Assembly (NCBI RefSeq): GCF_009725235.1
Contig: NZ_WJFC01000011.1
Location: 1 to 64,000, forward strand
Direction: 5' to 3'
DNA from: Scytonema sp. UIC 10036
GTDB lineage: Bacteria; Cyanobacteriota; Cyanobacteriia; Cyanobacteriales; Nostocaceae
Length of the DNA: 64,000 nt
Positions within the stretch are counted from its first letter, which is position 1; the number at the start of each line of letters is the position of its first letter. Below are positions 26,281 through 44,003 of this stretch, piece by piece. Position numbers and translations under genes: made by a program. The notes beneath the pieces were generated by a model. The model was not told where the DNA came from. It saw only the letters and a program-made list of their open reading frames with translations, and did no database searches.

Positions 26281-26345
26281 GACTCTCTATATATTTCTGC
26301 TCTTGGATTCAAGGTTTTATTCACTCTCCGGAAAATTTTTTGAGA
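26281..26345 (-). promoter_or_regulatory. Shared promoter element, copy 1
   Basis: In minus-strand sense: an AAAAAATTTTCC tract, GGAGAGTGAATAAAACC, 17 nt, then AATATATAGAGAGTCGC. The start of the downstream gene is 146 bases away. The spacing fits a -35/-10 pair with an upstream A/T-tract. Other copies: 31393, 32795, 34980, 35988, 36517, 38632, 39500 and, for the first half, 43957. Confidence 0.65.
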
Positions 26346-26373
26346 GAATGGTATGAAGAGTAGCTCAACATCA

Positions 26374-26400
26374 ATGGGACGGGCTATAAGCACCGTCCCA
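26374..26400 (-). terminator. Terminator-like hairpin, GGGACGGGCT type
   Basis: GGGACGGGCTATAAGCACCGTCCC. The outer arms GGGACGG / CCGTCCC pair perfectly. It sits upstream of family copy 1, left of a fragment of another family member's 3' end, and so is probably that lost gene's terminator. Confidence 0.5.
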
Positions 26401-26507
26401 GTCGAAAAATTCTAGCGGTTCTCAGTTAAATGAAGTACAGATTCATCTGCGTTCATCTGCGGTTCTTTTTTAAGGTATTGATTAAGTTGATAACCTAAAG
26501 ATATCTG

Positions 26508-26567
26508 TAAAACTTTCAGAAAGTATCGAATAAATGTGACAATGAGAGTATGACATTTGCCATTCAC
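26508..26567 (-). promoter_or_regulatory. Palindromic regulator box, copy 2
   Basis: In minus-strand sense: ATGGCAAATGTCATACTC, then TGTCACATTTATTCGATAC and TTTTACAGATATC. It has the same layout as 20765-20842. It lies between a gene fragment and the terminator-like hairpin, so its present target is unclear. Confidence 0.5.
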
Positions 26568-26569
26568 AA

Positions 26570-26655
26570 GGGATTTAGTTGCAACCAACAGCAGTGCAAG
26601 TGCGAGGCTTTTTCCTGAAACTGAGACAGAAAGATGAATACGTGGCTGGCATTGG
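26570..26655 (-). pseudogene. Mosaic of two gene fragments
   Basis: AGTTGCAACCAACAGCAGTG at about 26577-26596 is the 3' end of the secreted-protein family (encoding TCTAVGCN and stop). Directly after it, CCTGAAACTGAGACAGAAAG at about 26610-26630 with the following ACGTGGCTGG matches 20018-20055, inside the cysteine-peptidase-like gene. The two pieces are fused without a reading frame. Confidence 0.6.
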
Positions 26656-29600
26656 CTACCTGTGAGTACCAATACCATCACATAAATGGCGGTTATTTTT
26701 GGCATTGGTATTGTACTTCAGATACCCGCGCACCCAATCACAACCACGTGATAGTAAGTCATCGAAATTCAGCTTCAACAAACGTGCTGTATTGTCAGCA
26801 CTTGCAGTGACAATGGTTTTACCATCTGGGCTGAACGCTACGTCTGTGATAGTTTCTTTATAACCAGTCAGGGTATTGACGAGTTCTCCCTGTAGATTCC
26901 ACAGACGCAATGTATTGTCCTTGCTACTAGTAGCAAGGGTTTGACCATCCGGGCTGAACCTGAGTGCCCAGACAGGTTTGCTATGACCGATGAGGGTATA
27001 AAGTTCCTGTCCTTGCAGATTCCACAAGCGTACTGTACTATCATCACTACCAGTAGCAATAATTTTACCATCCGGGCTGAAAGCGGCATTATTGACCGCA
27101 TCGGTATGACCGGTGAGGGTATAAAGTTCCTGTCCTTGCAGATTCCACAACTTCACTTCCGTGTCGTTACGACTGACAGTAGCAATGGTCTTGCCATCTG
27201 GGCTGAACGTTACTTTGTTGACAAACCTTCTATGGCCCTTAAGGACATGGAGTTGCTGTCCTTGCAAATTCCACAAACGTGCTGTATTGTCAGCACTAGC
27301 AGTGGCAATGGTCTTGCCATCCGGGCTGAACTCTAGGTCATAAACATAACCTTCATGACCTGTAAGAGTATGGAGTTGCTGTCCTTGCAAATTCCACAAG
27401 CTTACTGTGTTATCATAACTAGCTGTCGCAATGGTTTTGCCATCGGGACTAAATGCTAAGTTTGTGATATATGCCTTATGACCCATGAGGATATTAAGGA
27501 GCTTTCCTTCCAGATTCCACAAATGCACCATCTCGCCCTCACCACCTGCAGCAAAGATCTTGCCATCTGGGCTGAACACTACCCTATTGACGGAACCAGT
27601 GTACTCAGTAAGGGTATGAAGTTGCTGTCCTTGCAGATTCCACAAGCGTACTGTGCGGTCACGACTGGCAGTAGCAATAGTCTTGCCATCCGGGCTGAAC
27701 TCTACGTCTAGGATAGCATCGCTATGACCTTTAAGGAAATCCAATTGCTGTCTTTGCAGATTCCACAAGCGTACTGTGCGGTCATGACTGGCAGTGGCAA
27801 GAGTTTTGCCATCTTGGCTGAACGCTATGTCTAGGATAGCATTGCTATGACCTTTAAGGACATCGAATTGCTGTCCTTGCAGATTCCACAAACGTACTGT
27901 ATTGTCATAACTAGCAGTAGCAATAGTCTTGCCATCCGGGCTGAACGCTACTTGTATAACAGCGCTATGACCCTTAAGGACATAGAGTTGCTGTCCTTGC
28001 AGATTCCACAAATGTACTTTATCATAACTGGTCGTAGCAATGGTCTGGCTATCCGGGCTGAACGCCACGTGCTGAACAGAATCGCTATGACCCTTAAGGA
28101 CATGGAGTTGCTGTCCTTGCAGATTCCACAAGCGTACTGTGCGATCGTAACTAGTAGTGGCAATAGTCTTGCCATCTGGGCTGAACGCCACGTGCTCAAT
28201 AGAATCGCTATGACCCTTAAGGACATGAAGTTGCTGTCCTTGAAGATTCCACAAGCGTATTGTGTAGTCACTATTAGCAATGGCAATGGTCTTACCATCT
28301 GGGCTGAACGCTACGCGTTCTGTACTATAACTGCGATCGTTGACGGTTAGTCTTTGAATTTCCTGTCCTTGAAGATTCCACAAGCGTACTGTCTGGTCAT
28401 TACTAGCAGTGGCAATAGTCTGACCATCTGGGCTAAACTCCACTGCCCTCAAAAATCTCTCATGACCGCTGAGGATACCGATCGCTTGTCCCTGCAAATT
28501 CCACAAGCGTACTGTGTAGTCATCACTACCAGTGGCAAGAGTTTTACCATCTGGGCTGAACACTATTTTTGTAACAGATCTGCCATGACCCCTAAGGGTA
28601 TGGAGTTGCTGTCCTTGCAGATTCCACAAACGCACTGTGTAGTCATTACTAGCAGTGCCAATGGTCTTACCATCTGGGCTAAACACTACTTTTGTAATAG
28701 AACCGTTATGACCTTTTAAGCGATTATACTCTTTTACTCCATAAACTGTCTGTTGCAATGCAGCCACTACTTGCATTGGAATATCAGCTCGCCCTTTTAG
28801 TGGTACTGCTGCTCGTAAACTTACTATCAATGCTTCAAGCTTTTGATCTCGCTCAAAAATTTGTTTTGAATATTGGCTGAGAGCTTTACTGTGATCTAAT
28901 TGAGCGGTTTCTACTTGCCACTGTTGCCTAAGTGCGAACCCAGCGAAACTTACAGCACCTATAAAACCAGCAGCTAGACCTAAGACGATCCGCAGTCTTC
29001 TGCGTTGTTTTTCCTTTTGCTCGCTCTCCCGCAATCTTAAACTAGCTATGATAAAGTCTTGCTCTTCTTCTGTCAGATCGTCTAAACGTTTTTGCAACCA
29101 ATCTTCTGCTACAGCTAGCGGTACGCCCCGCAATAATGCAGCAGGGTCGCGATCGCTATTTTTCCATTCGTGTATTGCTAGTTTTAGCCGTTCTTGCCAA
29201 AGGCGAAACTGACGGTTAGCGTTTATCCACTCTCGCAAAGTTCCCCATTCGCGAATCAGCGCTTCATGAACTACCTCCACCGTGTCTTCACCAGACTTAT
29301 CATTATGTCCTGTCACGACTAAACGTGCTTCAGGACCGGCTAAACGAATAACCAGTCCCCAATTCTCTTCCCCAACTTCTGTGCGGGTAGCTAAGCGCCT
29401 AGTATCCTCTGTTCCCTCTCCAGGGCGAACTGATGGCAGAAAAATGCGTTGTACTTGTATCTTCTCGACATCACTAAGTTTGTTATAAACCTCTTGAGCG
29501 TGTTTAACCAAAGCTTGTTTCACACCCCCGATTTCGTCATATGCTTTATGAGTCAATACATAATTTTGCTGTTTCTTCCATAATTCAGCGAGCGCAAATT

Positions 29601-30936
29601 CTAATAAGGGTAAAGAACCTGGTTCTTGGCCGACATCATCTAATATTCGTTCTGTTAAATGTTCTTCTAACTGCACTTTCAACTTTTGAGCGGGCATCTC
29701 AATGGTTGCTTTGAGTTCGTCCCGACTCATCGAACTCAGTAACTGAGGCGTAAACTCTTGCAATGCATGACAAAACGGAGGGTAGGATAAAACATCATCG
29801 TAAAAGTCAGCTCTGAGAGTAAGAACTAACGTTAGACTTTTTTGATAAATAGCTTCTAGTAAAATATCAACAAAGCGCTCCTGTTGTTTTTTATCCTGGC
29901 AAAGAGTATAAAGTTCCTCAAATTGGTCTGCTATTAACAATAGACGTTTATTGGAACTTTCCAAAATGCCAGACACTATCTGCTGCAAACTTATTTCACC
30001 ATTTTTTAGCCTTTCTGCCAATTTCACTGCCTTGACTACTCGCTCGAGATTACCAAGCTCTGGTTCTAGCTGACGCACCAAAGCAGAAGCTAGCTCATCA
30101 AATGGTTGTTTACCAGGACGAAAAGATTCAATTAACCAAGTGCCTTCTGTTCGCAAGCGTGGAATCAATCCCGCAAAAACGACGGAGGATTTCCCGCTAC
30201 CGCTAGAACCCACTACAGTTATTAAGGGATCTTTATGAGTGGTTTGGAATAAATTCTCAACAAATTTCTCTCTTCCATAAAAGAATTCTGCATCTTTCTC
30301 ACCAAAAGCAAACAATCCTTGATAGGGGTTGGGAGGAATAAAGTTAGATTGAGTTTGAGTGATGTGGTTTTTTTTCTTAAATACTGGAGTGGAGTATTCA
30401 TTTAAGCTAATAAGCTGAGATGAGCCTAACTTAAAAGCAGACTCTACATCTTTCCCAGCTGCAAGAGTATCGTAGAATGCGACGGTAAAATTGATAGCGC
30501 TTCTATCCCCAATTGCTTGGTTCATGCCAATGACATAATTAATGTGCTGACTAATGGCTTCTGCCTGCGCCTCTGAGTAGCAAGCGTTCAACACTACACA
30601 CTCTACACCGTTTGTAGCAAATATCTCAAACATACCTGCTAATGCATCTGCCTTAACAAACGCTGGCTGCCCCATTTCATCTTCTAGGACAAGACCTTCT
30701 TGCCCTGCTCCATGCCCGCTGAAATGAACTATTTGAGGTTGATAATCCAAAATAGCTCGGTAAAAGTCTCGCGATCGCACTGCCCATTTTTGCTCTAGCT
30801 TAAACTGCTCGCGCTGGTTAGAGCGTCGCAATCCTTCATCAATTTCCCGCACCTCTTCATCCAGTCGTAACCTGGAGGTATTTGTGGGATTGGCAGCTAG
30901 AATCAGAATTGTTTTGACATATAGGCTATTATTCAT
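26656..30936 (-). CDS. CHAT-STAND-WD40 protein
   Basis: A 1426-residue protein. Residues 8-175 are a CHAT caspase-like peptidase with His75 (HFSGHG) and Cys119 (VVLNACYS), both catalytic residues intact. Residues 203-640 are a STAND NTPase (NPYQGLFAFGEKDAEFFYGR, P-loop GSSGSGKS at 243-250, Walker-B-like KRLLLIADQFEELYTL). A membrane segment follows (IVLGLAAGFIGAVSFAGFAL), then 16 WD40 repeats up to about 1390 and a short tail (FDDLLSRGCDWVRGYL). The logic is sensor (WD40), switch (NTPase) and effector (protease), as in proteins proposed for programmed cell death or phage defence. The repeats are unusually uniform, and one (DKVHLWNLQ) lacks two residues. A promoter element copy (31393) and a regulator box (31297) lie 360-520 bases upstream. 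The start is ATG 30936. Confidence 0.9.
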   Translation of the reverse strand: MNNSLYVKTILILAANPTNTSRLRLDEEVREIDEGLRRSNQREQFKLEQKWAVRSRDFYRAILDYQPQIVHFSGHGAGQEGLVLEDEMGQPAFVKADALAGMFEIFATNGVECVVLNACYSEAQAEAISQHINYVIGMNQAIGDRSAINFTVAFYDTLAAGKDVESAFKLGSSQLISLNEYSTPVFKKKNHITQTQSNFIPPNPYQGLFAFGEKDAEFFYGREKFVENLFQTTHKDPLITVVGSSGSGKSSVVFAGLIPRLRTEGTWLIESFRPGKQPFDELASALVRQLEPELGNLERVVKAVKLAERLKNGEISLQQIVSGILESSNKRLLLIADQFEELYTLCQDKKQQERFVDILLEAIYQKSLTLVLTLRADFYDDVLSYPPFCHALQEFTPQLLSSMSRDELKATIEMPAQKLKVQLEEHLTERILDDVGQEPGSLPLLEFALAELWKKQQNYVLTHKAYDEIGGVKQALVKHAQEVYNKLSDVEKIQVQRIFLPSVRPGEGTEDTRRLATRTEVGEENWGLVIRLAGPEARLVVTGHNDKSGEDTVEVVHEALIREWGTLREWINANRQFRLWQERLKLAIHEWKNSDRDPAALLRGVPLAVAEDWLQKRLDDLTEEEQDFIIASLRLRESEQKEKQRRRLRIVLGLAAGFIGAVSFAGFALRQQWQVETAQLDHSKALSQYSKQIFERDQKLEALIVSLRAAVPLKGRADIPMQVVAALQQTVYGVKEYNRLKGHNGSITKVVFSPDGKTIGTASNDYTVRLWNLQGQQLHTLRGHGRSVTKIVFSPDGKTLATGSDDYTVRLWNLQGQAIGILSGHERFLRAVEFSPDGQTIATASNDQTVRLWNLQGQEIQRLTVNDRSYSTERVAFSPDGKTIAIANSDYTIRLWNLQGQQLHVLKGHSDSIEHVAFSPDGKTIATTSYDRTVRLWNLQGQQLHVLKGHSDSVQHVAFSPDSQTIATTSYDKVHLWNLQGQQLYVLKGHSAVIQVAFSPDGKTIATASYDNTVRLWNLQGQQFDVLKGHSNAILDIAFSQDGKTLATASHDRTVRLWNLQRQQLDFLKGHSDAILDVEFSPDGKTIATASRDRTVRLWNLQGQQLHTLTEYTGSVNRVVFSPDGKIFAAGGEGEMVHLWNLEGKLLNILMGHKAYITNLAFSPDGKTIATASYDNTVSLWNLQGQQLHTLTGHEGYVYDLEFSPDGKTIATASADNTARLWNLQGQQLHVLKGHRRFVNKVTFSPDGKTIATVSRNDTEVKLWNLQGQELYTLTGHTDAVNNAAFSPDGKIIATGSDDSTVRLWNLQGQELYTLIGHSKPVWALRFSPDGQTLATSSKDNTLRLWNLQGELVNTLTGYKETITDVAFSPDGKTIVTASADNTARLLKLNFDDLLSRGCDWVRGYLKYNTNAKNNRHLCDGIGTHR

Positions 30937-31296
30937 GAGATATTGGAAAAAGAATGATTATTTACGATTTTACACAGCAAACAAAATATGAGATTGCCAG
31001 AAAGTTAGCAAGAGAAATCTTATACAGCATTTTTTAGGTAGAATGAAGTACATTGGTAAGAACGTGGCGGTCTTATACCCTTACAATAAGGAGTACCTCA
31101 TTTGGTTGCAAACAATTAATTAAAGCAAGATGAAAGTTGTCCGCTTTGGTGTTACCAACAACACTCTTGCACTGGCAATTTACTTATGGGAGCGTGGTTG
31201 GTCACAAGCTCACAACGTTCATCCAGAAGCAATCTTACAAGGAATAGTGAGAAATAACAGCACCGCCCTTTATGTTCTTGACTTCATGACTTTAAG
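30937..31296. other. Leader region of the CHAT-STAND gene
   Basis: No gene on either strand is convincing. A 61-codon plus-strand frame at 31130-31315 lacks a ribosome binding site and family. The region separates the CHAT-STAND start from the regulator box and promoter element to its right, so it could be a long 5' leader. Confidence 0.35.
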
Positions 31297-31363: not shown

Positions 31364-31392
31364 ATCAATGTCGTTCTGTTTGGAGCGCAATT

Positions 31393-31455
31393 GCAACTCT
31401 CTATATATCTCTGCTCGCGTCTTCACAGTTTTATTCACTCTCCGGAAAATTTTTT
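31393..31455 (-). promoter_or_regulatory. Shared promoter element, copy 2
   Basis: In minus-strand sense: AAAAAATTTTCCGGAGAG, TGAATAAAACT, 17 nt, GATATATAGAGAGTTGC. It is the only element copy pointing at the CHAT-STAND-WD40 gene, 457 bases from its start. One core base differs (AAAACT for AAAACC). Confidence 0.5.
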
Positions 31456-31560: not shown

Positions 31561-32649
31561 TTAGTTACAACCAACAGCAGTGCAAGTGCGGGGTTTATCA
31601 ACGTCAGTTGTAGGTGTTGTTGGTTGCTCGTAAACTGTGGGAGGGTCGCTATTTGGGACAAAAGAAGCACAGTTAGCGATCGCTCTAGTGTAAGCTTCTT
31701 GACGAGAGACTGCACCGGAGTTGAGTCGTTGCTCGAAAGTTTGTTGGTTGTTGACAACGCTCATAGCTACAAGAAATGCGCTTTCCATCTTATTTTGAAC
31801 AGCATCCCGACTTTCGATAGTATCCATGCCAGTGCTAGAAACATCCAACGCAAAACCCAAACCACCACCACCAATGCGCTTTGGCTTGAGAGCAAAACCT
31901 TGGCGGTAGTTCACCGATGCGCCACAAGCCGAACTGTATTGGAATGAGAAAGCTTCACCGCCAGTTCCGGGTGCTTGCGAACCAAACTGAATGTGGTTGT
32001 GTCGCGCACCTTCCACCTTGACACGTGTGCTGGGGGAAACATTGGGGGCGACAGTTGTAGCACCAGTAGTTACAGATTGTTGGTTCTTTTGGTCACCAAC
32101 CGAAGAGCTAGAACTGTTATTGACATGACCGACTGTGGCCGAACCACCTTGAGCATTGTTCTCATTGGTATTGTGGCTGTTACCACTGTCGCGGATTGTG
32201 GCTTTGGCATCAGAGCTACTGTTGGATTCACTACTGCTGTTTGAATCAGAGTTGGCTGTGGTGGGAGTAATCACAGTTGTGTTTGTGCCACCGTTTTCTA
32301 CCTGTTGGCTGATACTGGGAATATTGGTAGTTGATGAATCGGTTTCGCGCTTGGGTTCGGGCTCGTCTGTTGGTGAAGAGGTGCGGTGTGAATCATAAAT
32401 TGCCGTGTTGCGAGCATCGCAACGTGGGTCAATCTGTGGAACATCATTTCTTGCTTCACAATCAATGGCTTGATTTAAAATTCCTGTAGGATTTTCCGTG
32501 TAGTTCGCTGCATCTACAAATGTCTCCGGGCCATTAGCCACACCCTTTATCTGTTGATTCACCACTTGAGCTGAGGCAACATTTGCAAATAAAATCGCAG
32601 TGGTTGATAAACTTAATAAACTGATGGTAGCAATTTTTTTAGCAAACAT
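31561..32649 (-). CDS. Secreted Ser/Asn/Thr-rich protein, family copy 2
   Basis: A 362-residue exported protein, nearly identical at DNA level to 25083-26135 and 37400-38488. It has a signal peptide, a two-cysteine N-terminal module, an S/N/T-rich linker (about 85-200) and a conserved C-terminal domain. Unlike copy 1 it keeps the original tail (SDPPTVYEQPTTPTTDVDKP, then RTCTAVGCN), with two further cysteines at the end. The RBS TAGGAGT lies 6-7 bases before ATG. A promoter element is at 32795-32860 and a terminator-like hairpin at 31490. Function unknown; surface or matrix protein is plausible from the export signal and low-complexity linker. Confidence 0.72.
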   Translation of the reverse strand: MFAKKIATISLLSLSTTAILFANVASAQVVNQQIKGVANGPETFVDAANYTENPTGILNQAIDCEARNDVPQIDPRCDARNTAIYDSHRTSSPTDEPEPKRETDSSTTNIPSISQQVENGGTNTTVITPTTANSDSNSSSESNSSSDAKATIRDSGNSHNTNENNAQGGSATVGHVNNSSSSSVGDQKNQQSVTTGATTVAPNVSPSTRVKVEGARHNHIQFGSQAPGTGGEAFSFQYSSACGASVNYRQGFALKPKRIGGGGLGFALDVSSTGMDTIESRDAVQNKMESAFLVAMSVVNNQQTFEQRLNSGAVSRQEAYTRAIANCASFVPNSDPPTVYEQPTTPTTDVDKPRTCTAVGCN

Positions 32650-32794: not shown

Positions 32795-32860
32795 GACTCT
32801 CTATATATTTCTGCTCTTGGATTCAAGGTTTTATTCACTCTCCGGAAAATTTTTTAGAGA
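32795..32860 (-). promoter_or_regulatory. Shared promoter element, copy 3
   Basis: In minus-strand sense: AAAAAATTTTCCGGAGAG, TGAATAAAACC, 17 nt, AATATATAGAGAGTCGC. It is 146 bases before the start of family copy 2 and identical in layout to 26281-26345. Confidence 0.65.
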
Positions 32861-33060: not shown

Positions 33061-33069
33061 GGCTAGCTG

Positions 33070-33342: not shown

Positions 33343-34083
33343 CTAAGGGTATGGTGTCAAAAATAGTTCAGCTTCAGCTTGCCTTCGTGCCAAAAGCCCT
33401 TGCTCAACATTTGTTCCAGGGTTGCGATACTTGATAAAAGTTTCGTGGATTTTGGACCAATCACGATTGTTTAAAACTGTAGTGATTGAATTGAAGTTAG
33501 GAGCACCATAGAATTTACTTCCCAAGTTGTAGCCAAAGCTGAGTAATGCTCCTTGTTGGTTAGGGTTGAGTTCGCTCCAACAAGGTATTTTTGCTAGATC
33601 GGGTAAGTAATCTCTCTCCAACTGAAGAATCAAAAGCTCATCAGCTTCTTGTTGGGAAATGCTCTCTCTAAGATGCCACTCACTACCATCACGTTTCTTA
33701 GTCGATCCCCAACCAATTGTGATAGGTTCTCGCTTGGTTAAAGGATCGGGATATGCATTGAGAAAACAACCTTCAAAGCGTTTAATTAACTCAACGCCAG
33801 AAATAGGTAAGCTTGTAGGAATTAAGGCTATGGTATTGGGAACTTCCTTAGCTTCAATGAGCTTTTCTGCAAATGCTGCATTTAAAAGTTCGGGTAGGTT
33901 AAAGGCTTGAGCAAATTTTACTATTGCCTGTTTAGTGATTGGTCCATAAGCGCCGTCGGCAACTCCAGAAAGTAATTTTAGCTCTCTCAGGCGAATTTGA
34001 ATTTGTTGTGCTAACTCGCGATCTTGTCCTAAATAATCAAACTCGAAGGATTCGTTAAGCTTGACAATATCTTGAAGTTTCAT
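33343..34083 (-). CDS. GH24 lysozyme with N-terminal binding domain
   Basis: A 246-residue protein. Residues 20-65 resemble a peptidoglycan-binding fold (IRLRELKLLSGVADGAYGPI, KQAIVKFAQAFNL). Residues 95-245 are a T4-lysozyme-type GH24 domain: catalytic Glu104 in LIKRFEGC, Asp113 in YPDPLT, and Thr122 in TIGWGST, followed by AELFLTPYP at the end. It would cleave the glycan strands of peptidoglycan. No signal peptide is visible. A good ribosome binding site (AGAGGAAAG) precedes ATG 34083. It lies 21 bases after an L,D-transpeptidase-like gene and is presumably co-transcribed from the promoter element at 34980. A phage endolysin origin is possible. Confidence 0.85.
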   Translation of the reverse strand: MKLQDIVKLNESFEFDYLGQDRELAQQIQIRLRELKLLSGVADGAYGPITKQAIVKFAQAFNLPELLNAAFAEKLIEAKEVPNTIALIPTSLPISGVELIKRFEGCFLNAYPDPLTKREPITIGWGSTKKRDGSEWHLRESISQQEADELLILQLERDYLPDLAKIPCWSELNPNQQGALLSFGYNLGSKFYGAPNFNSITTVLNNRDWSKIHETFIKYRNPGTNVEQGLLARRQAEAELFLTPYP

Positions 34084-34104: not shown

Positions 34105-34566
34105 TTAATAAGTGTAACCAACGAGAAGTTTAACTTCTTTGTGCTGTTGGCATTTGTCTGCGAAAACTTTTTCAAAATCAGCAAACTCACCATCTGAGAG
34201 GACGATACAACCCATACTTCCTGGCACATTGGCATCGCGGTGAATCAGCAGATCGCTGCGAGTCCCGCCATCCTTTGTTTTTACTTCAAAAGGTGTAATT
34301 GGATACCCGTTGCCTTCTACTCCCTTGACGTGTTTCAAGTCTACAGGGTTGACTGCCACAGAATAAAAAGCTAATGGTTGAGACAACTCATAAGTAGGCG
34401 GTAATGCTCCGCCACGTACATTCCAATCTTTGACGCCTTGCTTATCTGCGGTGCTGCTTGTCGCCACCCATCTGCCGACAATTCCTTGTGCTTCATCAAT
34501 CAGGAATAGTCTTCCTCTGTTTAACTGAGATGTTTCGTCTAGTGGCATGGTGAAAAATAACAGCAT
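34105..34566 (-). CDS. L,D-transpeptidase-like protein, copy 1
   Basis: A 153-residue protein with a YkuD-like catalytic pattern LLIHRDANVPGSMGCIVL (His109, Ser117, Cys120). The rest is a compact beta domain beginning FLIDEAQGIVGRWVATSS. It lacks a signal peptide and any anchor, and is shorter than typical L,D-transpeptidases, so it may be a minimal catalytic domain. AAGGAG precedes ATG 34566. It is preceded by a 65-codon ORF and followed by the lysozyme gene, forming the only complete cassette. Copies 2 and 3 differ from it by few residues. Confidence 0.75.
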   Translation of the reverse strand: MLLFFTMPLDETSQLNRGRLFLIDEAQGIVGRWVATSSTADKQGVKDWNVRGGALPPTYELSQPLAFYSVAVNPVDLKHVKGVEGNGYPITPFEVKTKDGGTRSDLLIHRDANVPGSMGCIVLSDGEFADFEKVFADKCQQHKEVKLLVGYTY

Positions 34567-34695: not shown

Positions 34696-34893
34696 TTATC
34701 TGCGATCGCCTGCGCCTTTTGTATCCGTACCGCCTGTACGGGGTGGCTTTGGCATGGATCTGCTACTAGTGGTGCTGCTATCAAACCACCGCAGTGTACT
34801 TCTGTGAATTTTGGCGATGAGAGATAACTTTTTTTGCTTGGATTGTTGTAATTGTTCTGGTTCTAGAGTGGCTGCTAATCTTTGAGAAAACAT
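34696..34893 (-). CDS. Conserved 65-residue basic protein, copy 1
   Basis: A small ORF with a well-placed ribosome binding site (TAGGAGT) and start ATG 34893, 87 bases downstream of a promoter element. Product: MFSQRLAATLEPEQLQQSKQ, a lysine-rich KKLSLIAKIHRSTLRWF, then a serine run and PKPPRTGGTDTKGAGDRR at the end. It is not recognised. It could be a precursor peptide, a leader peptide or a small regulator. Four copies exist (34696, 35704, 36233, 39216) in the same promoter context, the last with several substitutions but still open, which supports coding. The 130 bases between it and the transpeptidase gene contain another frame without a clear start. Confidence 0.55.
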   Translation of the reverse strand: MFSQRLAATLEPEQLQQSKQKKLSLIAKIHRSTLRWFDSSTTSSRSMPKPPRTGGTDTKGAGDRR

Positions 34894-34979: not shown

Positions 34980-35042
34980 CAACTCTCTAAATATTTCTGC
35001 TCTTGGATTCAAGGTTTTATTCAAAGCGCGGAAAAATTTTTG
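34980..35042 (-). promoter_or_regulatory. Shared promoter element, copy 4
   Basis: In minus-strand sense: AAAATTTTTCCGCGCTT, TGAATAAAACC, 17 nt, AATATTTAGAGAGTTGC. It is 87 bases before the 65-residue ORF. The flanks differ from the family-A copies, while the core is kept. Confidence 0.65.
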
Positions 35043-35112: not shown

Positions 35113-35574
35113 TTAGTAGGTGTAACCAACCAGAAGTTTAACTTCTTTGTGCTGTTGGCATTTTTCTGCGAAAACTTTTTCAAAATCAGCGAACTCACCA
35201 TCTGAGAGGACGATACAACCCATACTTCCTGGCACATTGGCATCGCGGTGAATCAGCAAATCGCTGCGAGTCCCGCCATCCTTTGTTTTCACCTCAAAAG
35301 GTGTAATCGGATACCCGTTGCCTTCTACTCCCTTGACGTGTTTCAAGTCTACAGGGTTGACTGCCACAGAATAAAAAGCTAATGGTTGAGACAACTCATA
35401 AGTAGGCGGTAATGCTCCGCCACGTACATTCCAATCTTTGACGCCTTGCTTATCTGCGGTGCTGCTTGTCGCCACCCATCTGCCGACAATTCCTTGTGCT
35501 TCATCAATCAGGAATAGTCTTCCTCTGTTTAACTGAGATGTTTCGTCTAGTGGCATGGTGAAAAATAACAGCAT
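35113..35574 (-). CDS. L,D-transpeptidase-like protein, copy 2
   Basis: A 153-residue protein almost identical to the one at 34105 (for example Ala for Asp near VFAxKCQQHK), with HRDANVPGSMGC intact. It is exactly 1008 bases from copy 1. AAGGAG precedes the ATG at 35574. No lysozyme gene follows; instead the promoter of the next cassette comes about 70 bases after the stop. Confidence 0.75.
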   Translation of the reverse strand: MLLFFTMPLDETSQLNRGRLFLIDEAQGIVGRWVATSSTADKQGVKDWNVRGGALPPTYELSQPLAFYSVAVNPVDLKHVKGVEGNGYPITPFEVKTKDGGTRSDLLIHRDANVPGSMGCIVLSDGEFADFEKVFAEKCQQHKEVKLLVGYTY

Positions 35575-35987: not shown

Positions 35988-36050
35988 CAACTCTCTAAAT
36001 ATATCTGCTCTTGGATTCAAGGTTTTATTCAAAGCGCGGAAAAATTTTTG
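35988..36050 (-). promoter_or_regulatory. Shared promoter element, copy 5
   Basis: Same as copy 4, with one change in the -10 region (ATATATTTAG in place of AATATTTAG). It is 87 bases before the second 65-residue ORF. Confidence 0.6.
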
Positions 36051-36516: not shown

Positions 36517-36579
36517 CAACTCTCTAAATATTTCTGCTCTTGGATTCAAGGTTTTATTCAAAGCGCGGAAAAATTTTTG
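36517..36579 (-). promoter_or_regulatory. Shared promoter element, copy 6
   Basis: Sequence as copy 4 (AAAATTTTTCCGCGCTT, TGAATAAAACC, 17 nt, AATATTTAGAGAGTTGC), 87 bases before the third 65-residue ORF. Confidence 0.65.
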
Positions 36580-36649: not shown

Positions 36650-37111
36650 TTAGTAGGTGTAACCAACCAGAAGTTTAACTTCTTTGTGCTGTTGGCATTT
36701 TTCTGCGAAAACTTTTTCAAAATCAGCGAACTCACCATCTGAGAGGACGATACAACCCATACTTCCTGGCACATTGGCATCGCGGTGAATCAGCAAATCG
36801 CTGCGAGTCCCGCCATCCTTTGTTTTCACCTCAAAAGGTGTAATCGGATACCCGTTGCCTTCTACTCCCTTGACGTGTTTCAAGTCTACAGGGTTGACTG
36901 CCACAGAATAAAAAGCTAATGGTTGAGACAACTCATAAGTAGGCGGTAATGCTCCGCCACGTACATTCCAATCTTTGACGCCTTGCTTATCTGCGGTGCT
37001 GCTTGTCGCCACCCATCTGCCGACAATTCCTTGCGCTTCATCAATCAAAAATAGTCTTCCTCTATTTAACTGAGATGTTTCGTCTAGTGGCATGGTGAAA
37101 AATAACAGCAT
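36650..37111 (-). CDS. L,D-transpeptidase-like protein, copy 3
   Basis: A 153-residue protein with the same HRDANVPGSMGC site as copies 1 and 2. AAGGAG precedes ATG 37111; the frame is open upstream to 37210 because part of the preceding cassette was lost. No 65-residue ORF or TGAATAAAACC element lies upstream. Instead the palindromic regulator box at 37195-37265 is 85-150 bases away, so this copy may be under different control. Confidence 0.75.
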   Translation of the reverse strand: MLLFFTMPLDETSQLNRGRLFLIDEAQGIVGRWVATSSTADKQGVKDWNVRGGALPPTYELSQPLAFYSVAVNPVDLKHVKGVEGNGYPITPFEVKTKDGGTRSDLLIHRDANVPGSMGCIVLSDGEFADFEKVFAEKCQQHKEVKLLVGYTY

Positions 37112-37399: not shown

Positions 37400-38488
37400 T
37401 TAGTTGCAGCCAACAGCAGTGCAAGTGCGGGGTTTATCAACGTCAGTTGTAGGTGTTGTCGGTTGCTCGTAAACTGTGGGCGGATCGCTATTTGGGACGA
37501 AAGAAGCACAGTTAGCGATCGCTCTGGTGTAAGCTTCTTGACGAGAGACTGCACCGGAGTTGAGGCGTTGCTCGAAAGTTTGTTGGTTGTTGACAACGCT
37601 CATCGCTACAAGAAATGCGCTTTCCATCTTATTTTGAACAGCATCCCGACTTTCGATAGTATCCATGCCAGTGCTAGAAACATCCAACGCAAAACCCAAA
37701 CCACCACCACCAATGCGCTTTGGCTTGAGAGCAAAACCTTGGCGGTAGTTCACCGATGCGCCACAAGCCGAACTGTATTGGAATGAGAAAGCTTCACCGC
37801 CAGTTCCGGGTGCTTGCGAACCAAACTGAATGTGGTTGTGTCGCGCACCTTCCACCTTGACACGTGTGCTGGGGGAAACATTGGGGGCGACAGTTGTAGC
37901 ACCAGTAGTTACAGATTGTTGGTTCTTTTGGTCACCAACCGAAGAGCTAGAACTGTTATTGACATGACCGACTGTGGCCGAACCACCTTGAGCATTGTTC
38001 TCATTGGTATTGTGGCTGTTACCACTGTCGCGGATTGTGGCTTTGGCATCAGAGCTACTGTTGGATTCACTACTGCTGTTTGAATCAGAGTTGGCTGTGG
38101 TGGGAGTAATCACAGTTGTGTTTGTGCCACCGTTTTCTACCTGTTGGCTGATACTGGGAATATTGGTAGTTGATGAATCGGTTTCGCGCTTGGGTTCGGG
38201 CTCGTCTGTTGGTGAAGAGGTGCGGTGTGAATCATAAATTGCCGTGTTGCGAGCATCGCAACGTGGGTCAATCTGTGGAACATCATTTCTGGCTTCACAA
38301 TCAATGGCTTGATTTAAAATTCCTGTAGGATTTTCCGTGTAGTTCGCTGCATCCACAAATGTCTCCGGGCCATTAGCCACACCCTTAATCTGTTGATTCA
38401 CCACTTGAGCATTCGCCGCATTTGCAAATAAGATCGCAGTTGCTGATACACTTAATAATCCGATGGTAGCAATTTTTTTAGCAAACAT
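37400..38488 (-). CDS. Secreted Ser/Asn/Thr-rich protein, family copy 3
   Basis: A 362-residue exported protein, nearly identical to 31561-32649 but with a slightly different signal peptide (MFAKKIATIGLLSVSATAIL, then FANAANA). It has the same two-cysteine N-terminal module, S/N/T-rich linker, glycine-containing C-terminal domain and TCTAVGCN end. The signal peptide is intermediate between those of 23788 and 25083, which suggests recombination among family members. RBS TAGGAGT. Promoter element at 38632-38695, 144 bases upstream. Confidence 0.72.
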   Translation of the reverse strand: MFAKKIATIGLLSVSATAILFANAANAQVVNQQIKGVANGPETFVDAANYTENPTGILNQAIDCEARNDVPQIDPRCDARNTAIYDSHRTSSPTDEPEPKRETDSSTTNIPSISQQVENGGTNTTVITPTTANSDSNSSSESNSSSDAKATIRDSGNSHNTNENNAQGGSATVGHVNNSSSSSVGDQKNQQSVTTGATTVAPNVSPSTRVKVEGARHNHIQFGSQAPGTGGEAFSFQYSSACGASVNYRQGFALKPKRIGGGGLGFALDVSSTGMDTIESRDAVQNKMESAFLVAMSVVNNQQTFEQRLNSGAVSRQEAYTRAIANCASFVPNSDPPTVYEQPTTPTTDVDKPRTCTAVGCN

Positions 38489-38631: not shown

Positions 38632-38695
38632 GACTCTCTATATATTTCTGCGCCTATCCGACAGGTTTTATTCAACTTCAGGAAAATTTTTTAGA
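38632..38695 (-). promoter_or_regulatory. Shared promoter element, copy 7
   Basis: In minus-strand sense: AAAATTTTCCTGAAGT, TGAATAAAACC, 17 nt with a different sequence (TGTCGGATAGGCGCAGA), then AATATATAGAGAGTCGC. The diverged spacer beside conserved boxes supports functional constraint. Confidence 0.7.
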
Positions 38696-39035: not shown

Positions 39036-39103
39036 TCAAATAGAATTGCTATATGCGGTTTCTAAAATCTTTGATAGATTGCTATCTTAAAAGCGCAAAC
39101 TAA

Positions 39104-39215: not shown

Positions 39216-39413
39216 TTATCTGCGATCGCCTGCGCCTTTTGTATCCGTACCGCCTGTACGGGGTGGCTTTGGCATAGATCTGTTGCTAGTGGTGCTGATA
39301 TCAAACCACCACAGTGTACTTCTGTGAATTTTCGCGATGAGAGATAACTTTTTTTGCTTGGGTGGTTGTGATTGTTCTAGTTTTAGAGTTGCTGCTAATC
39401 TTTGAGAAAACAT
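39216..39413 (-). CDS. Conserved 65-residue basic protein, copy 4
   Basis: A divergent copy (MFSQRLAATLKLEQSQPPKQ, FDISTTSNRSMPKPP, same DTKGAGDRR end). All differences keep the frame open and most change amino acids conservatively. The ribosome binding site reads TAGGAGTATACC. A promoter element lies 87 bases upstream. It is probably the oldest copy in the array. Confidence 0.55.
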   Translation of the reverse strand: MFSQRLAATLKLEQSQPPKQKKLSLIAKIHRSTLWWFDISTTSNRSMPKPPRTGGTDTKGAGDRR

Positions 39414-39499
39414 GGTATACTCCTAACAGTGACTGAAAAAAATTGATTTTTGAGTAAAAGTTGTTCCCGCTTAAGTTTCTTCTTTAAGCAGCACAACTG

Positions 39500-39562
39500 C
39501 AACTCTCTAAATATTTGTGCTCTTGGATTCAAGGTTTTATTCAAATCCAGAAAAATTTTTTT
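39500..39562 (-). promoter_or_regulatory. Shared promoter element, copy 8
   Basis: In minus-strand sense: AAAAAAATTTTTCTGGAT, TTGAATAAAACC, 17 nt, AAATATTTAGAGAGTTGC. It is 87 bases before the 65-residue ORF copy 4. 39563-39735 further right is A/T-rich with nothing recognisable. Confidence 0.65.
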
Positions 39563-39787: not shown

Positions 39788-42082
39788 CTATTGTTTTGCT
39801 CTAAATGCGGCGGTCATTAAACTTGTGCTGGTAACAACCAAAGCCACAGATGAAGGAACAAACGGAATCCAAACAGCTCCTATAAGTAGAAAGTTGAAGC
39901 ACACACCACCTAATATAATGAGTGCAACACTGTTACCAATTATCAAGTGTAATAGCAACTGACAGCGCCAAGCTAACAAACCACCTACCAAAGCCCAAGC
40001 CAAAATCCACAGTGCATCACCCCATAGCGACCAAACCGATAACAGGGGACGGCCATCTTCCACTGCACTCAGAATTTGACTGACCATCTGTGCGTGAATG
40101 AGTACTCCAGGTATATCTTGAGAAAATCCCTTACCACCAGTAAAAGGAGTAAAATGACGGTCTCTACCCTCTGTATCTGCACCAATTAAGACAATCCGAT
40201 TTTTAATGATTTCAGGATGAACACGACCTTTTAAAATATCTGTAATAGTCATTGACTCAGCAAGTTCTATGGGGAGTCGATAATTCAGTAATATCTGATA
40301 TCCACCAGCATGAAACTTTTGATAGCCCCCACTATGAGGTAATAAACGCTTGAAAACAACAGAGCCAATTTGCCATTGGTTTTGCTTGGTCAGTTTGATA
40401 GAATATTTTTTCGCTTCTAAGTACCGAGTTGCAAGTTGAAAAGACAAGCTATAAGGTGTTGGACAAGTATTTTGGGCTTTTAAATCCATTGATAATAATT
40501 GACGGCGCAGGATGAATTCATTTGGTACGTCATTGAAGCCCAAGCTTTCTTGAGGTAAGTTGGCGGGAGGCGGTCCAAACCCTCGATCGTTTTCATCTGG
40601 TCTTTTACAGATGGCAATTAGGCTCGCGCTTTCTTTAAAAATTTTGAGTAATTGTTCTTGTCCCTTACCCTGTGGTAAATCCCGATAAAGGTCGATGCCA
40701 ATAGCAATGGGTTTATGAGCTTCTATTTTTTTGAGAATTTTTGCTAAGGTTTCGTCATGCAGTGGATCTTGATTGAGTTGCTGAAAATCCTCTTCAGTGG
40801 CTTTGACAATTAATAAACGTTCGTCTAACCCCTCCTCTGGTCGCCATTGCAACATTTGGTCAAAAGCTTTTAATTCTGTGGGTTGAAACATTCCCAGCGA
40901 TCGCACACCAACAACACAAGCCGTCACTGCTAAACTTGTGAGAGCGACAGCATATAATTTTAATCTGTGACGCCGTTCTGAAATCCAGTCTTTAGACTTT
41001 TCCTGCCAATCTTTCCAAGTTGGTGGTGCTTCTGGAGAATTTTGATAAATCACTGGTAACCAAGTTGCACAAGGAAATTCATCTTCCAATCCCTCTAATT
41101 TTCCTCGTGCTTCTTTAACAGCAGAATATAAAGACTCCCCGCGATAAAACGCTTCTAAAAAGTATTTTAAAAATGTCTGTGCTACTTTATCCGGTACAGG
41201 TTGACGCATCACAATCATTTGCGGAATACATAAATCCACCAAAGACCTTGCCAAACCCAAACCGTCACAAGAATTAAAAATTGCTAATTTTAACCCATTT
41301 TCAACAGCTTTTTTTAAAGATTGTTTTAACTCGGCAATTGTTAAAGTATCTGTTTGATTAATATGAATCCACCCGCTTTCGCCATCTAGTTGACTGGAAC
41401 TATGTCCGGCAAAAAAGAGAATATCCCACCCTTTATCATCCCACAATTTTTCTGTTAACTCTTGACGCTGTGGCTCGGATAAAAATAAAATTTCCGCATC
41501 AGGAAGTTGCTGTTTCAACAAAGCTGCATCTGCTTGAGTGTTAATACCTGTACTGTTTCCTAAAATAGCTAAAATTCTTACCCTAGACTTAGTAGGTCTT
41601 TTTCCAACACACTCATAAAATGGAGAAATAACAGCAACTTCAGCCTTGGGGTAAGATTCAAATAAATTCCACAAGTGCCAAGGAAAACGCTGTAATCGCA
41701 CGTCCATTGTTTGAATCAGAACCCGCATTTCATCCTCGGATGAAACTTTTTGGATAAATTTCTCTCTGATTAATCGGAGTGCATCTGAGTTCAACCAAAT
41801 ATTGAGACTATTCCGCAAGATATTAGCTGCGTGGTTGCAATCTTTAAGAAAAGAACCACGGGTTGCTTTTCCCTTATTTTTAGATGACAACCGATATAAC
41901 ATTTCCAAATTGCAATAAGCAGAGTTCCAAATCTCATAGTGTTTGATGATATCGGGGTTAGGTGGTAACTTACCCCGGATTTCCACTGAAGGATTTTTTC
42001 CCTCCTCACCTATTTGCAACCTAATGGGAAACCCACTTTCAAAGTCTCCTTCTCCCAACTCAAAAACAACTAACTTTCTCAC
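39788..42082 (-). CDS. CHAT-CHASE2 membrane protein
   Basis: A 764-residue protein. After an N-terminal region of about 160 residues comes a CHAT caspase-like domain (VRILAILGNSTGIN, His in LFFAGHSSSQ, Cys in LAIFNSCDGLG; end PCATWLPVIYQ). A membrane segment follows (LYAVALTSLAVTACVVGVRS), then a CHASE2 extracytoplasmic sensor (WRPEEGLDERLLIVKATEED, PIAIGIDLYRD, RIVLIGADTEGRDRHFTPF), and three C-terminal membrane helices. So an external signal could control a cytoplasmic peptidase. It is the last gene of the sigma / DUF1822 operon, 36 bases after the DUF1822 gene. In this family the CHASE2 fold usually belongs to kinases or cyclases; here CHAT replaces the output. Confidence 0.88.
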   Translation of the reverse strand: MRKLVVFELGEGDFESGFPIRLQIGEEGKNPSVEIRGKLPPNPDIIKHYEIWNSAYCNLEMLYRLSSKNKGKATRGSFLKDCNHAANILRNSLNIWLNSDALRLIREKFIQKVSSEDEMRVLIQTMDVRLQRFPWHLWNLFESYPKAEVAVISPFYECVGKRPTKSRVRILAILGNSTGINTQADAALLKQQLPDAEILFLSEPQRQELTEKLWDDKGWDILFFAGHSSSQLDGESGWIHINQTDTLTIAELKQSLKKAVENGLKLAIFNSCDGLGLARSLVDLCIPQMIVMRQPVPDKVAQTFLKYFLEAFYRGESLYSAVKEARGKLEGLEDEFPCATWLPVIYQNSPEAPPTWKDWQEKSKDWISERRHRLKLYAVALTSLAVTACVVGVRSLGMFQPTELKAFDQMLQWRPEEGLDERLLIVKATEEDFQQLNQDPLHDETLAKILKKIEAHKPIAIGIDLYRDLPQGKGQEQLLKIFKESASLIAICKRPDENDRGFGPPPANLPQESLGFNDVPNEFILRRQLLSMDLKAQNTCPTPYSLSFQLATRYLEAKKYSIKLTKQNQWQIGSVVFKRLLPHSGGYQKFHAGGYQILLNYRLPIELAESMTITDILKGRVHPEIIKNRIVLIGADTEGRDRHFTPFTGGKGFSQDIPGVLIHAQMVSQILSAVEDGRPLLSVWSLWGDALWILAWALVGGLLAWRCQLLLHLIIGNSVALIILGGVCFNFLLIGAVWIPFVPSSVALVVTSTSLMTAAFRAKQ

Positions 42083-42118
42083 TGTCTTGGCGTCGCTCCT
42101 TACAGGTTTTCTTCTTAA

Positions 42119-43099
42119 TTAGATAATAAAGTTTTCTGTAGTACTGATATCACCAAGTGCGACTCGAATGCTAAATTTCTCACCGGGATGACCACCAATT
42201 TGCAACTGAAGAAAATCGTCGTCAGATAAAGCTTGAGTTTCCTCAAAAATAGCTCCAGACTCATCAAGTATCATGAGTTGCAAACCGGGTGGAAGGGCTG
42301 TTTGTGCCGCAGCCGGGATAACTTGCACGTGGATATCAATTTCTTGTTCTTCTGATACAGATGTAAATTCAGTACTTGATGCCAGCGAGACTGCAAGGAT
42401 AATGGAATAATTTCCTTGTGGGGTCTGTAGCTCGATTGTTTTGCCACCACGCGAACTGGTATTTTGTCGGAATTGTCGGAAGCCAAAAGCTAAATTGGTT
42501 TGCTGTGTACTTACCAAAGAATCCAGAGTTTGCCAACCAGTTTCAAAAGCGTTCCGCAACCATTGGTTGAGATTTGTGAGTTGTGCAGTAGCACTAACAG
42601 ATGGAGATACTTTTTCACGCAGTTGATTTAAAGATCTCAGTAAATTTCTGAGTGGTTGAAATTGATGCAACGGGATTTCTTCTGCTTCCACCGTTGGGAT
42701 AAAACCTAAAATTGCAGCCTCTTCCAGAGTTTCATCCATCTGTACCGCAGTATAACCAATGCGATCGCCCCAGACATCGACAGGAACATGACAGGTTTGC
42801 TCGTGCGGTGTCACCGGACGGCATTCCAAACGGCCCAATCCTGTAACAATTAGATCGGCAACATCACTGCACAAGCAAACAAACGCATTGCGGCTGTAAC
42901 TTGCTGCAATATCTGTAGGAATATCCATCATTTGTAAGTAGTTGTCAACGACTGACACCGCCAAAGTATTCAACAACACTTGTTCCGCCTTTTCCGGAGT
43001 TGGTTGACGTGCTGCCAATTGACGAGCGGTATTGCGTGCTTCTTCAGTAATGGGTAACACAATAGTGCGATCGTATATTTCATGTGTTATTCCAGCCAT
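42119..43099 (-). CDS. DUF1822 family protein
   Basis: A 326-residue soluble protein. The N-terminal helical part (TEEARNTARQLAARQPTPEK, LNTLAVSVVDNYLQMMDI), the central VPVDVWGDRIGYTAVQMDETLEEA and the C-terminal beta-rich part (LMILDESGAIFEETQAL, GEKFSIRVALGD) are hallmarks of DUF1822, a cyanobacterial family of unknown function that is usually found between an ECF-like sigma factor and a CHASE2 protein. That context is exactly reproduced here. A role as sigma partner, for example anti-sigma or peptidase substrate, is inference. It starts 22 bases after the sigma gene's stop codon. Confidence 0.8.
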   Translation of the reverse strand: MAGITHEIYDRTIVLPITEEARNTARQLAARQPTPEKAEQVLLNTLAVSVVDNYLQMMDIPTDIAASYSRNAFVCLCSDVADLIVTGLGRLECRPVTPHEQTCHVPVDVWGDRIGYTAVQMDETLEEAAILGFIPTVEAEEIPLHQFQPLRNLLRSLNQLREKVSPSVSATAQLTNLNQWLRNAFETGWQTLDSLVSTQQTNLAFGFRQFRQNTSSRGGKTIELQTPQGNYSIILAVSLASSTEFTSVSEEQEIDIHVQVIPAAAQTALPPGLQLMILDESGAIFEETQALSDDDFLQLQIGGHPGEKFSIRVALGDISTTENFII

Positions 43100-43121
43100 A
43101 GTTATTCACTTTCCTTTTACT

Positions 43122-43757
43122 TTACAAATATCCTTGTTCTTCCCCAAATTTAAGGAGGCGTGGGAGGCACTGCCTTTGATAAAAGGTACTTAAGGTGGGT
43201 AACGGAACCTTGAATTCTGCTGCTATTTCTTTCCAACTCGTCTCTGGAGGTAAACGCCGTAGAATAATAGCTTGACAAGTGATTTCTGGGTGACCTTTGA
43301 TATGAATACTCCTCAACTCACCTGTTAAATCTGTTTCTGCCCACTCCCGTGTCACTTCCAACATGGAAGGAACATCAACTGGTGCGGCTACAGTTTCCAA
43401 AGGGTCAATTTCTTCACCCTTGTCGGAAATTTGCACCGACACAAATCGCTGTGCTGTTTTCTGACCTTGGGTGTAAAACTTTCGTAGTTCTAGCTTGAGG
43501 TAAGCATTCAGCCAAGTCACAACAGTACTGCGTTCCGAATCGAATTTTTCTCCAGTTGTTGCTTCGCAGAGATTGCGGCAGAAGTAAAGCCAAGTTCGTT
43601 GCAAAGCATCCTGATAGAAGGGCGAGTTCTCTTTCCACAGTTTTCTTTGCACAAGTTTAACAATTTCCGTCAAACCCTCTTGGCGCTCAAGGCTACCCTG
43701 GGGATGCTGACAGGTTTGTTGAACTAGCCGAACAATTTTTTGATTACCGTTATCCAT
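43122..43757 (-). CDS. ECF-like RNA polymerase sigma factor
   Basis: About 211 residues. Region 2-like sequence: NSPFYQDALQRTWLYFCRNL with AYLKLELRKFYTQG. Region 4-like helix-turn-helix near the C-terminus: PPETSWKEIAAEFKVPLPTL and STFYQRQCLPRLLKF. The divergent class lacks canonical region 1 and resembles sigma-70-family proteins that accompany DUF1822 in cyanobacteria. I prefer ATG 43757; an in-frame TTG at 43778 adds seven residues. The first half of the shared promoter element lies about 200 bases upstream, which suggests autoregulation. It is first gene of the operon sigma / DUF1822 / CHAT-CHASE2. Confidence 0.75.
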   Translation of the reverse strand: MDNGNQKIVRLVQQTCQHPQGSLERQEGLTEIVKLVQRKLWKENSPFYQDALQRTWLYFCRNLCEATTGEKFDSERSTVVTWLNAYLKLELRKFYTQGQKTAQRFVSVQISDKGEEIDPLETVAAPVDVPSMLEVTREWAETDLTGELRSIHIKGHPEITCQAIILRRLPPETSWKEIAAEFKVPLPTLSTFYQRQCLPRLLKFGEEQGYL

Positions 43758-43956
43758 AACACCCTGGCTGGCTGACAAGATTGGCTTTAAATTAGCACAA
43801 CTACAATACCAACTCTATACCCCTCTATCCCCATCCTCTGGGACTCTTTTAACTTTCTTGCTTGCGGCAAAGATAGTTATTGTAATCAGTTTCAATTTGA
43901 TGCCTACTTATACCTCCCTCGTGTGTGCGTTAATGGACTAACTGTCCTGTTAACTC

Positions 43957-44003
43957 ATGGAGCGAGTTTTGAGGTTTTATTCAAATTTCCTAAATTTTTT
44001 TCT
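43957..44003 (-). promoter_or_regulatory. Promoter element upstream of the sigma operon
   Basis: In minus-strand sense: AAAAAAATTTAGGAAAT, TTGAATAAAACC, then TCAAAACTCGCTCCATG and AGTTAACAGGACAGTTAG. The A/T tract and the TTGAATAAAACC core match the eight cassette copies; the downstream half matches only weakly. It is about 200 bases before the sigma factor start. Confidence 0.6.

What the first reader, a model, noticed from the sequence alone, without database searches (positions are those of the whole stretch)
26281..44003. Candidate sigma-factor regulon: one promoter element in nine places
Seen: eight minus-strand sites share an A/T tract, TGAATAAAACC, a constant 17-nt gap and AATATWTAGAGAGT (26281, 31393, 32795, 34980, 35988, 36517, 38632, 39500). 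A ninth site, upstream of the ECF-like sigma operon (43957), keeps the A/T tract and TTGAATAAAACC. Some copies are recent duplicates and not independent, but three flank types (secreted-family, 65-residue-ORF, sigma-operon) and the diverged spacer at 38632 show the core is constrained. Established: ECF-type sigma factors often recognise an AAC-containing -35 and autoregulate. Inference: this sigma factor drives its own operon and the wall/secretome cassettes beside it.
Basis: partly seen in the sequence, partly recalled or inferred. Interest (0 to 1): 0.85.

Follow-up and report, generated by a model that had tools for sequence, protein, structure and literature searches.

The report
Sigma factor's own local promoter set
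A cyanobacterial gene-switch protein appears to use one distinctive DNA start signal, found near the genes for that switch, to turn on itself and a neighbouring set of largely secreted or cell-wall genes.

Summary
In detail: eight minus-strand copies of TGAATAAAAY-N17-(A)ATATWTAGAGAGT at 26282-39543, none in 100 shuffles. The ninth, before the sigma operon, has TTGAATAAAACC and a weak -10 in register.

In Scytonema hofmannii PCC 7110 (12.3 Mb) all 10 hits with at most 1 mismatch lie within 25 kb of two paralogous sigma-DUF1822-CHAT/CHASE2 operons, including both sigma promoters; in Scytonematopsis contorta both such hits are on the sigma contig (pattern partly tuned on known sites). Of 217 family genomes, 145 carry the sigma family; only these two show a listed sigma above 60% identity, and only these two carry the element at 0-1 mismatch. 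Relatives of target genes outside such neighbourhoods lack it.

Targets differ between loci. The layout is a promoter's: A/T tract, -35-like box, fixed spacer, -10-like box. The protein model resembles ECF sigmas. Best reading: an autoregulated ECF-like sigma with a clustered envelope/secretion regulon. Transcription is untested. The operon type was described in silico before; I found no account of its promoter or regulon.

The parts
43942..43983 (-). Element before the sigma operon: TTGAATAAAACC with weak -10 (TTAACAGGA) in register
   Evidence: orthologous and paralogous sigma operons keep the element
39502..39543 (-). Element before the 65-aa ORF 39216-39413
   Evidence: 88 nt from its end to ATG
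38633..38674 (-). Element before secreted-family gene 37400-38488, diverged spacer
   Evidence: 144 nt to ATG
36519..36560 (-). Element before 65-aa ORF 36233-36430
35990..36031 (-). Element before 65-aa ORF 35704-35901 (1 mismatch)
34982..35023 (-). Element before 65-aa ORF 34696-34893
32796..32837 (-). Element before secreted-family gene 31561-32649
   Evidence: 146 nt to ATG
31396..31437 (-). Element (2 mismatches) about 460 nt before the nSTAND-WD40 gene; no ORF of 40 aa or more starts within 450 nt
   Evidence: same arrangement in PCC 7110 (A_8705)
26282..26323 (-). Element before secreted-family gene 25083-26135
   Evidence: 146 nt to ATG
23320..23343 (-). Truncated element: -10 half and leader only, before 187-aa ORF 22599-23162 with a signal-peptide-like start
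   Evidence: not present before the PCC 7110 ortholog
43122..43757 (-). ECF-like sigma-70 family factor, 211 aa
42119..43099 (-). DUF1822 protein (PF08852)
   Evidence: E 1.5e-72
39788..42082 (-). CHAT-CHASE2 protein (PF12770, PF05226)
37400..38488 (-). Secreted-family protein, 362 aa, signal-peptide-like N-terminus (judged by eye)
   Evidence: no Pfam match
31561..32649 (-). Secreted-family protein, second copy
25083..26135 (-). Secreted-family protein, third copy, different C-terminus
34105..34566 (-). 153-aa protein, weakly Tlde1-like (E 0.079, below cut-off), behind the 65-aa ORF and its element
35113..35574 (-). 153-aa protein, second copy, behind the 65-aa ORF and its element
36650..37111 (-). 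153-aa protein, third copy; no element within 600 nt upstream (best match 6 mismatches)
33343..34083 (-). Lysozyme with peptidoglycan-binding domain
   Evidence: PF00959 E 9.8e-19
34696..34893 (-). 65-aa ORF (four copies in the window)
26656..30936 (-). nSTAND1-WD40 protein downstream of element 31396

Best explanation
The element is the promoter of the ECF-like sigma factor encoded at 43122-43757. Holoenzyme carrying this sigma would read the A/T tract (UP-like, upstream of the -35 box), TTGAATAAAAC (-35) and TATAYAG (-10) at fixed spacing, and start transcription about 6-8 nt after the -10 box, near the conserved AGAGAGTTGC. It drives its own operon (sigma, DUF1822, CHAT-CHASE2) and a cluster of neighbouring genes, largely for putatively secreted or cell-wall proteins. 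DUF1822 and the membrane CHAT-CHASE2 protein would sense a signal and release or gate the sigma. Shown: the element, its geometry, its confinement to these sigma neighbourhoods in two related genomes, and a sigma-like predicted fold. Inferred: binding, transcription start, autoregulation, and the role of DUF1822 and CHASE2.
For: Confinement: 10 of 10 hits with at most 1 mismatch in PCC 7110 and 2 of 2 in Scytonematopsis are in sigma neighbourhoods. Concordance over 217 family genomes. The sigma gene carries the element in 4 of 4 clade operons with 20 nt between boxes; -10 mismatches 0, 0, 1 and 3. Target families differ between loci. Relatives of targets outside the neighbourhoods lack it: L184 (92% identical copy in the same PCC 7110 genome) 7 mismatches, L185, L186, L187, L195 and L196 5-6, against 0 for the four PCC 7110 copies inside (two of the 153-aa gene, two of the secreted family). 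Features not used to find the sites are conserved too: the A/T tract 10-18 nt upstream and CA at +24/25, in 19 non-redundant sites. ECF sigmas lead the fold matches. No other regulator family was found shared by the three neighbourhoods.
Against: No transcription data. The pattern was shaped by sites already seen. Simulation predicts no chance hits with at most 2 mismatches but is too optimistic: 12.3 three-mismatch hits expected against 27 hits for the reversed control at up to 3, and five real 2-mismatch hits lie elsewhere in PCC 7110. Relatives with a moderately similar region 4 (close-versus-far identity 59%) lack the element at their operons. The window's own sigma promoter has 3 mismatches in the -10. 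Inside the neighbourhood the third 153-aa copy and the decayed secreted copy at 23788-24354 have no element (6 and 5 mismatches). Sites 31396 and A_8705 have no ORF start within 450 nt. Pfam does not recognise the sigma. Sites within a locus are partly duplicates.
Confidence: 0.79

Rival explanations
1. The element is an operator/promoter read by another regulator: a transcription factor, or housekeeping RNA polymerase with an activator bound at TTGAATAAAAC, which also controls the sigma operon.
For: The boxes (TTGAATAAAAC, AGAGAGTTGC) are longer and more conserved than most ECF promoters need (general knowledge); sigma relatives with moderately similar region 4 lack the element.
Against: No second regulator family was found shared by the three neighbourhoods at blastp E up to 1e-5 in the stretches held, though a diverged or unlinked one could be missed; an unlinked regulator would be expected to leave sites elsewhere, and PCC 7110 has none with at most 1 mismatch; the boxes sit at -35/-10 spacing with an A/T tract upstream.
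Confidence: 0.14
2. The copies are by-products of local duplication: the element was carried along as cassettes were amplified, or is a small mobile repeat, without a shared regulatory role.
For: Window copies 34982, 35990 and 36519 are parts of near-identical duplications.
Against: Between loci only the boxes, A/T tract and leader are kept while spacer, flanks and downstream genes differ; two genera and two paralogous operons share it; in PCC 7110 it occurs nowhere else at 0-1 mismatch.
Confidence: 0.04
3. The conserved part is an RNA leader element (a 5' UTR structure) rather than a promoter.
For: AGAGAGTTGCAGTTG is conserved past the -10 box, and a leader-only copy exists at 23320-23343.
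Against: Five leaders folded with z-scores from -1.99 to 0.28 and no common structure; the most conserved box lies upstream of any plausible start.
Confidence: 0.03

Closest known systems
ECF sigma - DUF1822 - EACC2/caspase-(CHASE2) neighbourhoods (Kaur et al. 2021, eLife, PMC8195603; passages seen)
   Same: Same gene trio: ECF sigma, DUF1822, and a caspase-clan (here CHAT) protein with a CHASE2 C-terminus; the authors proposed that the sigma regulates many genes.
   Different: The passages seen name no promoter, regulon or target; here a specific element and its local targets are proposed. The EACC2 domain itself was not tested here.
Autoregulated ECF sigma regulons (for example sigma-E, SigW; general knowledge)
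   Same: Two-domain sigma with ECF fold matches, likely self-regulated operon, conserved -35 and -10 boxes with fixed spacing.
   Different: Neighbours are DUF1822 and CHAT-CHASE2 rather than a recognised anti-sigma; boxes are A/T-rich and long; predicted targets cluster near the sigma; Pfam sigma profiles miss the protein.
SigJ J-box promoters of Nostoc punctiforme (PMC6495340; passages seen)
   Same: A cyanobacterial alternative-sigma promoter defined from a conserved motif.
   Different: J-box is GGGaAtacT, an extended -10 with weak -35, with about 100 promoters; this element has a strong -35-like box and few, clustered sites.

Membership tests
ECF (group 4) sigma factors | Region 2 and region 4 folds only, no regions 1 and 3 | tested here: met
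ECF (group 4) sigma factors | Sequence match to Pfam sigma-70 region 2/4 profiles | tested here: not met
   0 families at E up to 0.001 and at E up to 1; NCBI labels on several homologs say sigma-70 family. Hence 'ECF-like', not a filed member of a numbered ECF group.
ECF (group 4) sigma factors | Recognises its own promoter (autoregulation) with an AAC-type -35 | tested here: inconclusive
   Element before 4 of 4 clade sigma operons, with AAAAC in three and AAAAT in one; recognition not shown.
ECF (group 4) sigma factors | Binds core RNA polymerase and initiates transcription | not testable with these tools
   Needs biochemistry.
ECF-DUF1822-EACC2/caspase systems (Kaur et al. 2021) | Neighbouring ECF sigma and DUF1822 genes | tested here: met
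   PF08852 beside the sigma-like gene; conserved in three neighbourhoods.
ECF-DUF1822-EACC2/caspase systems (Kaur et al. 2021) | Caspase-clan domain followed by a variable C-terminal domain such as CHASE2 | tested here: met
   PF12770 CHAT 172-329 and PF05226 CHASE2 387-702; CHAT is taken as caspase-clan from general knowledge.
ECF-DUF1822-EACC2/caspase systems (Kaur et al. 2021) | N-terminal EACC2 domain | not tested
   Residues 1-171 gave no Pfam match; no EACC2 profile was searched.
SigJ J-box promoters | GGGaAtacT extended -10 | tested here: not met
   The -10 consensus here is TATATAG/TATAYAG with CA about 5 nt upstream.

The most novel reading that the evidence does not exclude
CHAT-CHASE2 and DUF1822 act as a protease-gated, membrane-sensing release system for the sigma, in place of an anti-sigma factor, and the sigma then switches on a co-located set of secreted lectin-fold proteins, murein hydrolases and surface proteins: a self-contained interference or envelope-defence module whose targets change between strains while promoter and sensor stay.
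Probability: 0.25. Interest if true: 0.78.

Novelty: new member of a known kind. Interest (0 to 1): 0.6.

Why it matters
The sigma of this system is common (145 of 217 genomes of one family carry a relative at E up to 1e-60), and I found no account of its output in the papers searched. A sequence-defined promoter gives a direct handle: reporter fusions, start-site mapping and target prediction become simple for this clade. It also suggests a target set that turns over around a fixed promoter and sensor.

Tried and rejected
RNA leader structure: five leaders folded, no common structure. J-box: not the same motif. Viral contigs: exact pattern absent, 0 matches. Plasmid collection: one record, a 4% match in Planktothrix. 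Three-mismatch hits in other genomes (L083, L084, L098: TGGATAAAAC type) lie inside ORFs of 515-532 aa, with no sigma in the 3 kb held. Does the wider sigma family use the same element? 112 upstream rows were scored (some rows may be the same locus reached twice). Four rows scored 0 mismatches, but three of them (L001, L117, L154) are one locus, so two loci. One row (L061, the second sigma of Scytonematopsis) scored 3 with a 19-nt spacer; 107 scored 5 or more, like mononucleotide-shuffled sequence (4-10, one row without a score). Many distant members instead share a GTAAT-N23-ATACT doublet (21 of 77 upstream regions); not followed further. Homology of the window secreted family to the 198-aa secreted protein of PCC 7110 locus B: none. 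Equivalent of the 23339 half-site in PCC 7110: none, the upstream DNA there differs. Class-wide draw for sigma relatives at E up to 1e-84: only Scytonematopsis, 1 of 388. In one search the rows L188 and L191 turned out to read the same gene copy; one search scored both copies. L193, a fragment, was not scored. In one search four of 23 sites were dropped as near-duplicates, and the PCC 7110 site at L114 8776 (shifted -10, TGCATAAAAC) was left out beforehand. Papers: searches listed no description of this promoter or regulon; PMC8195603, PMC6495340 and PMC11119718 were seen as passages only, all others as listings. The library lacks most subscription journals and holds no preprints.

Full report
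Observation. The bipartite element is real. One search finds eight minus-strand copies within 3 mismatches and none in 100 shuffles; one search finds TTGAATAAAACC also at 43973-43984. Aligned, all nine show an A/T tract, the -35-like box and, in register, a -10-like box, which in the ninth has 3 mismatches. Several window copies are recent duplicates: the stretches starting at 34696, 35704 and 36233 are listed as 100% alike over 300 nt. The window alone therefore gives only a few independent sites.

Where it comes from. The window's sigma protein is 96% identical to one of Scytonema hofmannii PCC 7110. No whole genome is held for the window, so genome-wide tests were done in relatives. PCC 7110 (handle G195) has three family members at E up to 1e-60: 96%, 70% and 54%. 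Scytonematopsis contorta (G001, locus L001) has two: 70% and 53%.

Genome-wide test. With TTGAATAAAAY-N20-TAWWTAGAG, PCC 7110 has 8 exact and 2 one-mismatch hits, in two stretches. Eight are in the neighbourhood orthologous to the window (C1:11302666-11327843), including the site before sigma. Two are at the paralogous operon: one directly before that sigma gene, one about 11 kb downstream. Of six two-mismatch hits one is in the first neighbourhood and five lie elsewhere. In Scytonematopsis both hits with at most 1 mismatch are on the 35.8-kb sigma contig. So are 2 of its 27 three-mismatch hits, although the contig is 0.3% of the genome. The reversed control pattern gave 27 and 35 hits at up to 3 mismatches, against 45 and 32 for the pattern, so the 3-mismatch level is noise apart from position. 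This pattern was shaped partly by sites already seen, including both PCC 7110 sigma promoters. The earlier pattern TGAATAAAAC-N19-ATATWYAGAGAGT, set from the window and L001 alone, gave 7 exact hits in PCC 7110, all in the first neighbourhood, and one 3-mismatch hit, at the second. Five Mb of simulated sequence gave no hit with 0-2 mismatches, but the simulation underestimates chance: it predicts 12.3 three-mismatch hits where the reversed control shows 27 at up to 3.

Concordance across genomes. Of 217 genomes of the family, 36 have some hit at up to 3 mismatches, but 0-1 mismatch hits occur only in G195 and G001. In the same 217 genomes 145 have a sigma relative at E up to 1e-60. Among the listed matches (the list is cut below about 2e-67) only two proteins of G195 and one of G001 exceed 60% identity. 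An order-wide draw of 388 genomes gave an exact hit only in G001 and sigma relatives at E up to 1e-50 in 131 of 388, none but G001 above 60%; G195 is not in the listing of that draw.

Natural controls. Relatives of the target genes exist away from this sigma: the 153-aa protein in another place in PCC 7110 (92%), in Cyanomargarita, Calothrix and Iningainema (81-82%), and the secreted family in Cyanomargarita and Calothrix (55-61%). Their best upstream matches have 5-7 mismatches. More distant 153-aa relatives (L189, L190, L192) also lack it (6-7). Inside the PCC 7110 neighbourhood both 153-aa copies and both secreted copies score 0. Against this, in the window the third 153-aa copy (36650-37111) and the decayed secreted copy at 23788-24354 have no element (6 and 5 mismatches), so membership of the neighbourhood alone does not guarantee it.

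Targets. In the window: the secreted family (three copies), the 65-aa ORF (four copies), with 153-aa and lysozyme genes following on the same strand. In PCC 7110 locus B: a ricin-B-type lectin-fold protein, followed by a serine-rich protein and a CHAP-domain protein. In Scytonematopsis: an outer-membrane-barrel-like protein (PF13505, below its cut-off), and at the two weak sites a 120-aa protein and a DUF928 protein. In PCC 7110 locus A also a DUF6006 protein, 337 nt away. Signal peptides were judged by eye. Two-partner secretion genes (ShlB, TPS) are present in both PCC 7110 neighbourhoods and in Scytonematopsis, by Pfam in locus B and by blastp in the others; no counterpart appeared in the 64-kb window.

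Geometry and mechanism. In 19 non-redundant sites the conserved columns are the A/T tract, TTGAATAAAAC, CA at +24/25 and TATAYAGAGAGTTGC. The boxes were used to find the sites, so their conservation is partly circular; the A/T tract and the CA were not used. Taking TATAYAG as -10 puts TTGAATAAAAC near -35 and the A/T tract near -50 to -60, the place of an UP element (general knowledge). The likely circuit is an autoregulated sigma gated by DUF1822 and the membrane CHAT-CHASE2 protein. The gating step is a guess based on gene order and on the proposal of Kaur et al. (PMC8195603, passages). The main doubts are the lack of transcription data, the relatives with a moderately similar region 4 but no element, and the possibility of a different regulator.

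Novelty. The operon type is known in silico; no promoter or regulon for it turned up in the searches named under Tried and rejected. I rate this a new member of a known kind (an ECF-type autoregulated regulon), of interest because the sigma family is widespread and its output was unknown to me and to those searches.

Noticed in passing
L017, L020, L036, L050, L056, L060 and others, about 35-90 nt before the sigma start: Distant sigma relatives share a different conserved block, roughly AATATCRCGACRAGGGGTAATACT, and a second AATACT 25 nt on; GGGTAATACT resembles the J-box.
   Followed up: partly
window 23320-23343: Truncated copy of the element (-10 half and leader) before an ORF with a signal-peptide-like start; the PCC 7110 ortholog has different upstream DNA, which looks like a promoter replacement.
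   Followed up: partly
window 26656-30936; L113 3925-8200: nSTAND1-WD40 gene in one frame in the window but split into two frames in PCC 7110, with the element about 460 nt upstream in both.
   Followed up: no
L115 1112-9148: CHAT-TPR, ShlB/FhaC and TPS haemagglutinin genes between the paralogous sigma operon and its distal target; relatives of ShlB and TPS also lie beside the Scytonematopsis operon.
   Followed up: partly
window 23788-24354: A 188-aa ORF starts like the secreted family (MFAKKIATI) but diverges, perhaps a decayed fourth copy; no element within 600 nt upstream.
   Followed up: partly
window 36650-37111: Third 153-aa copy lacks an element within 600 nt upstream, unlike the other two copies.
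   Followed up: partly
G195:C1:4576761-4576800: Two-mismatch hit whose spacer (GAAGACGAGCGCA) resembles those of true sites, far from both close-clade sigma operons; downstream gene not examined.
   Followed up: no
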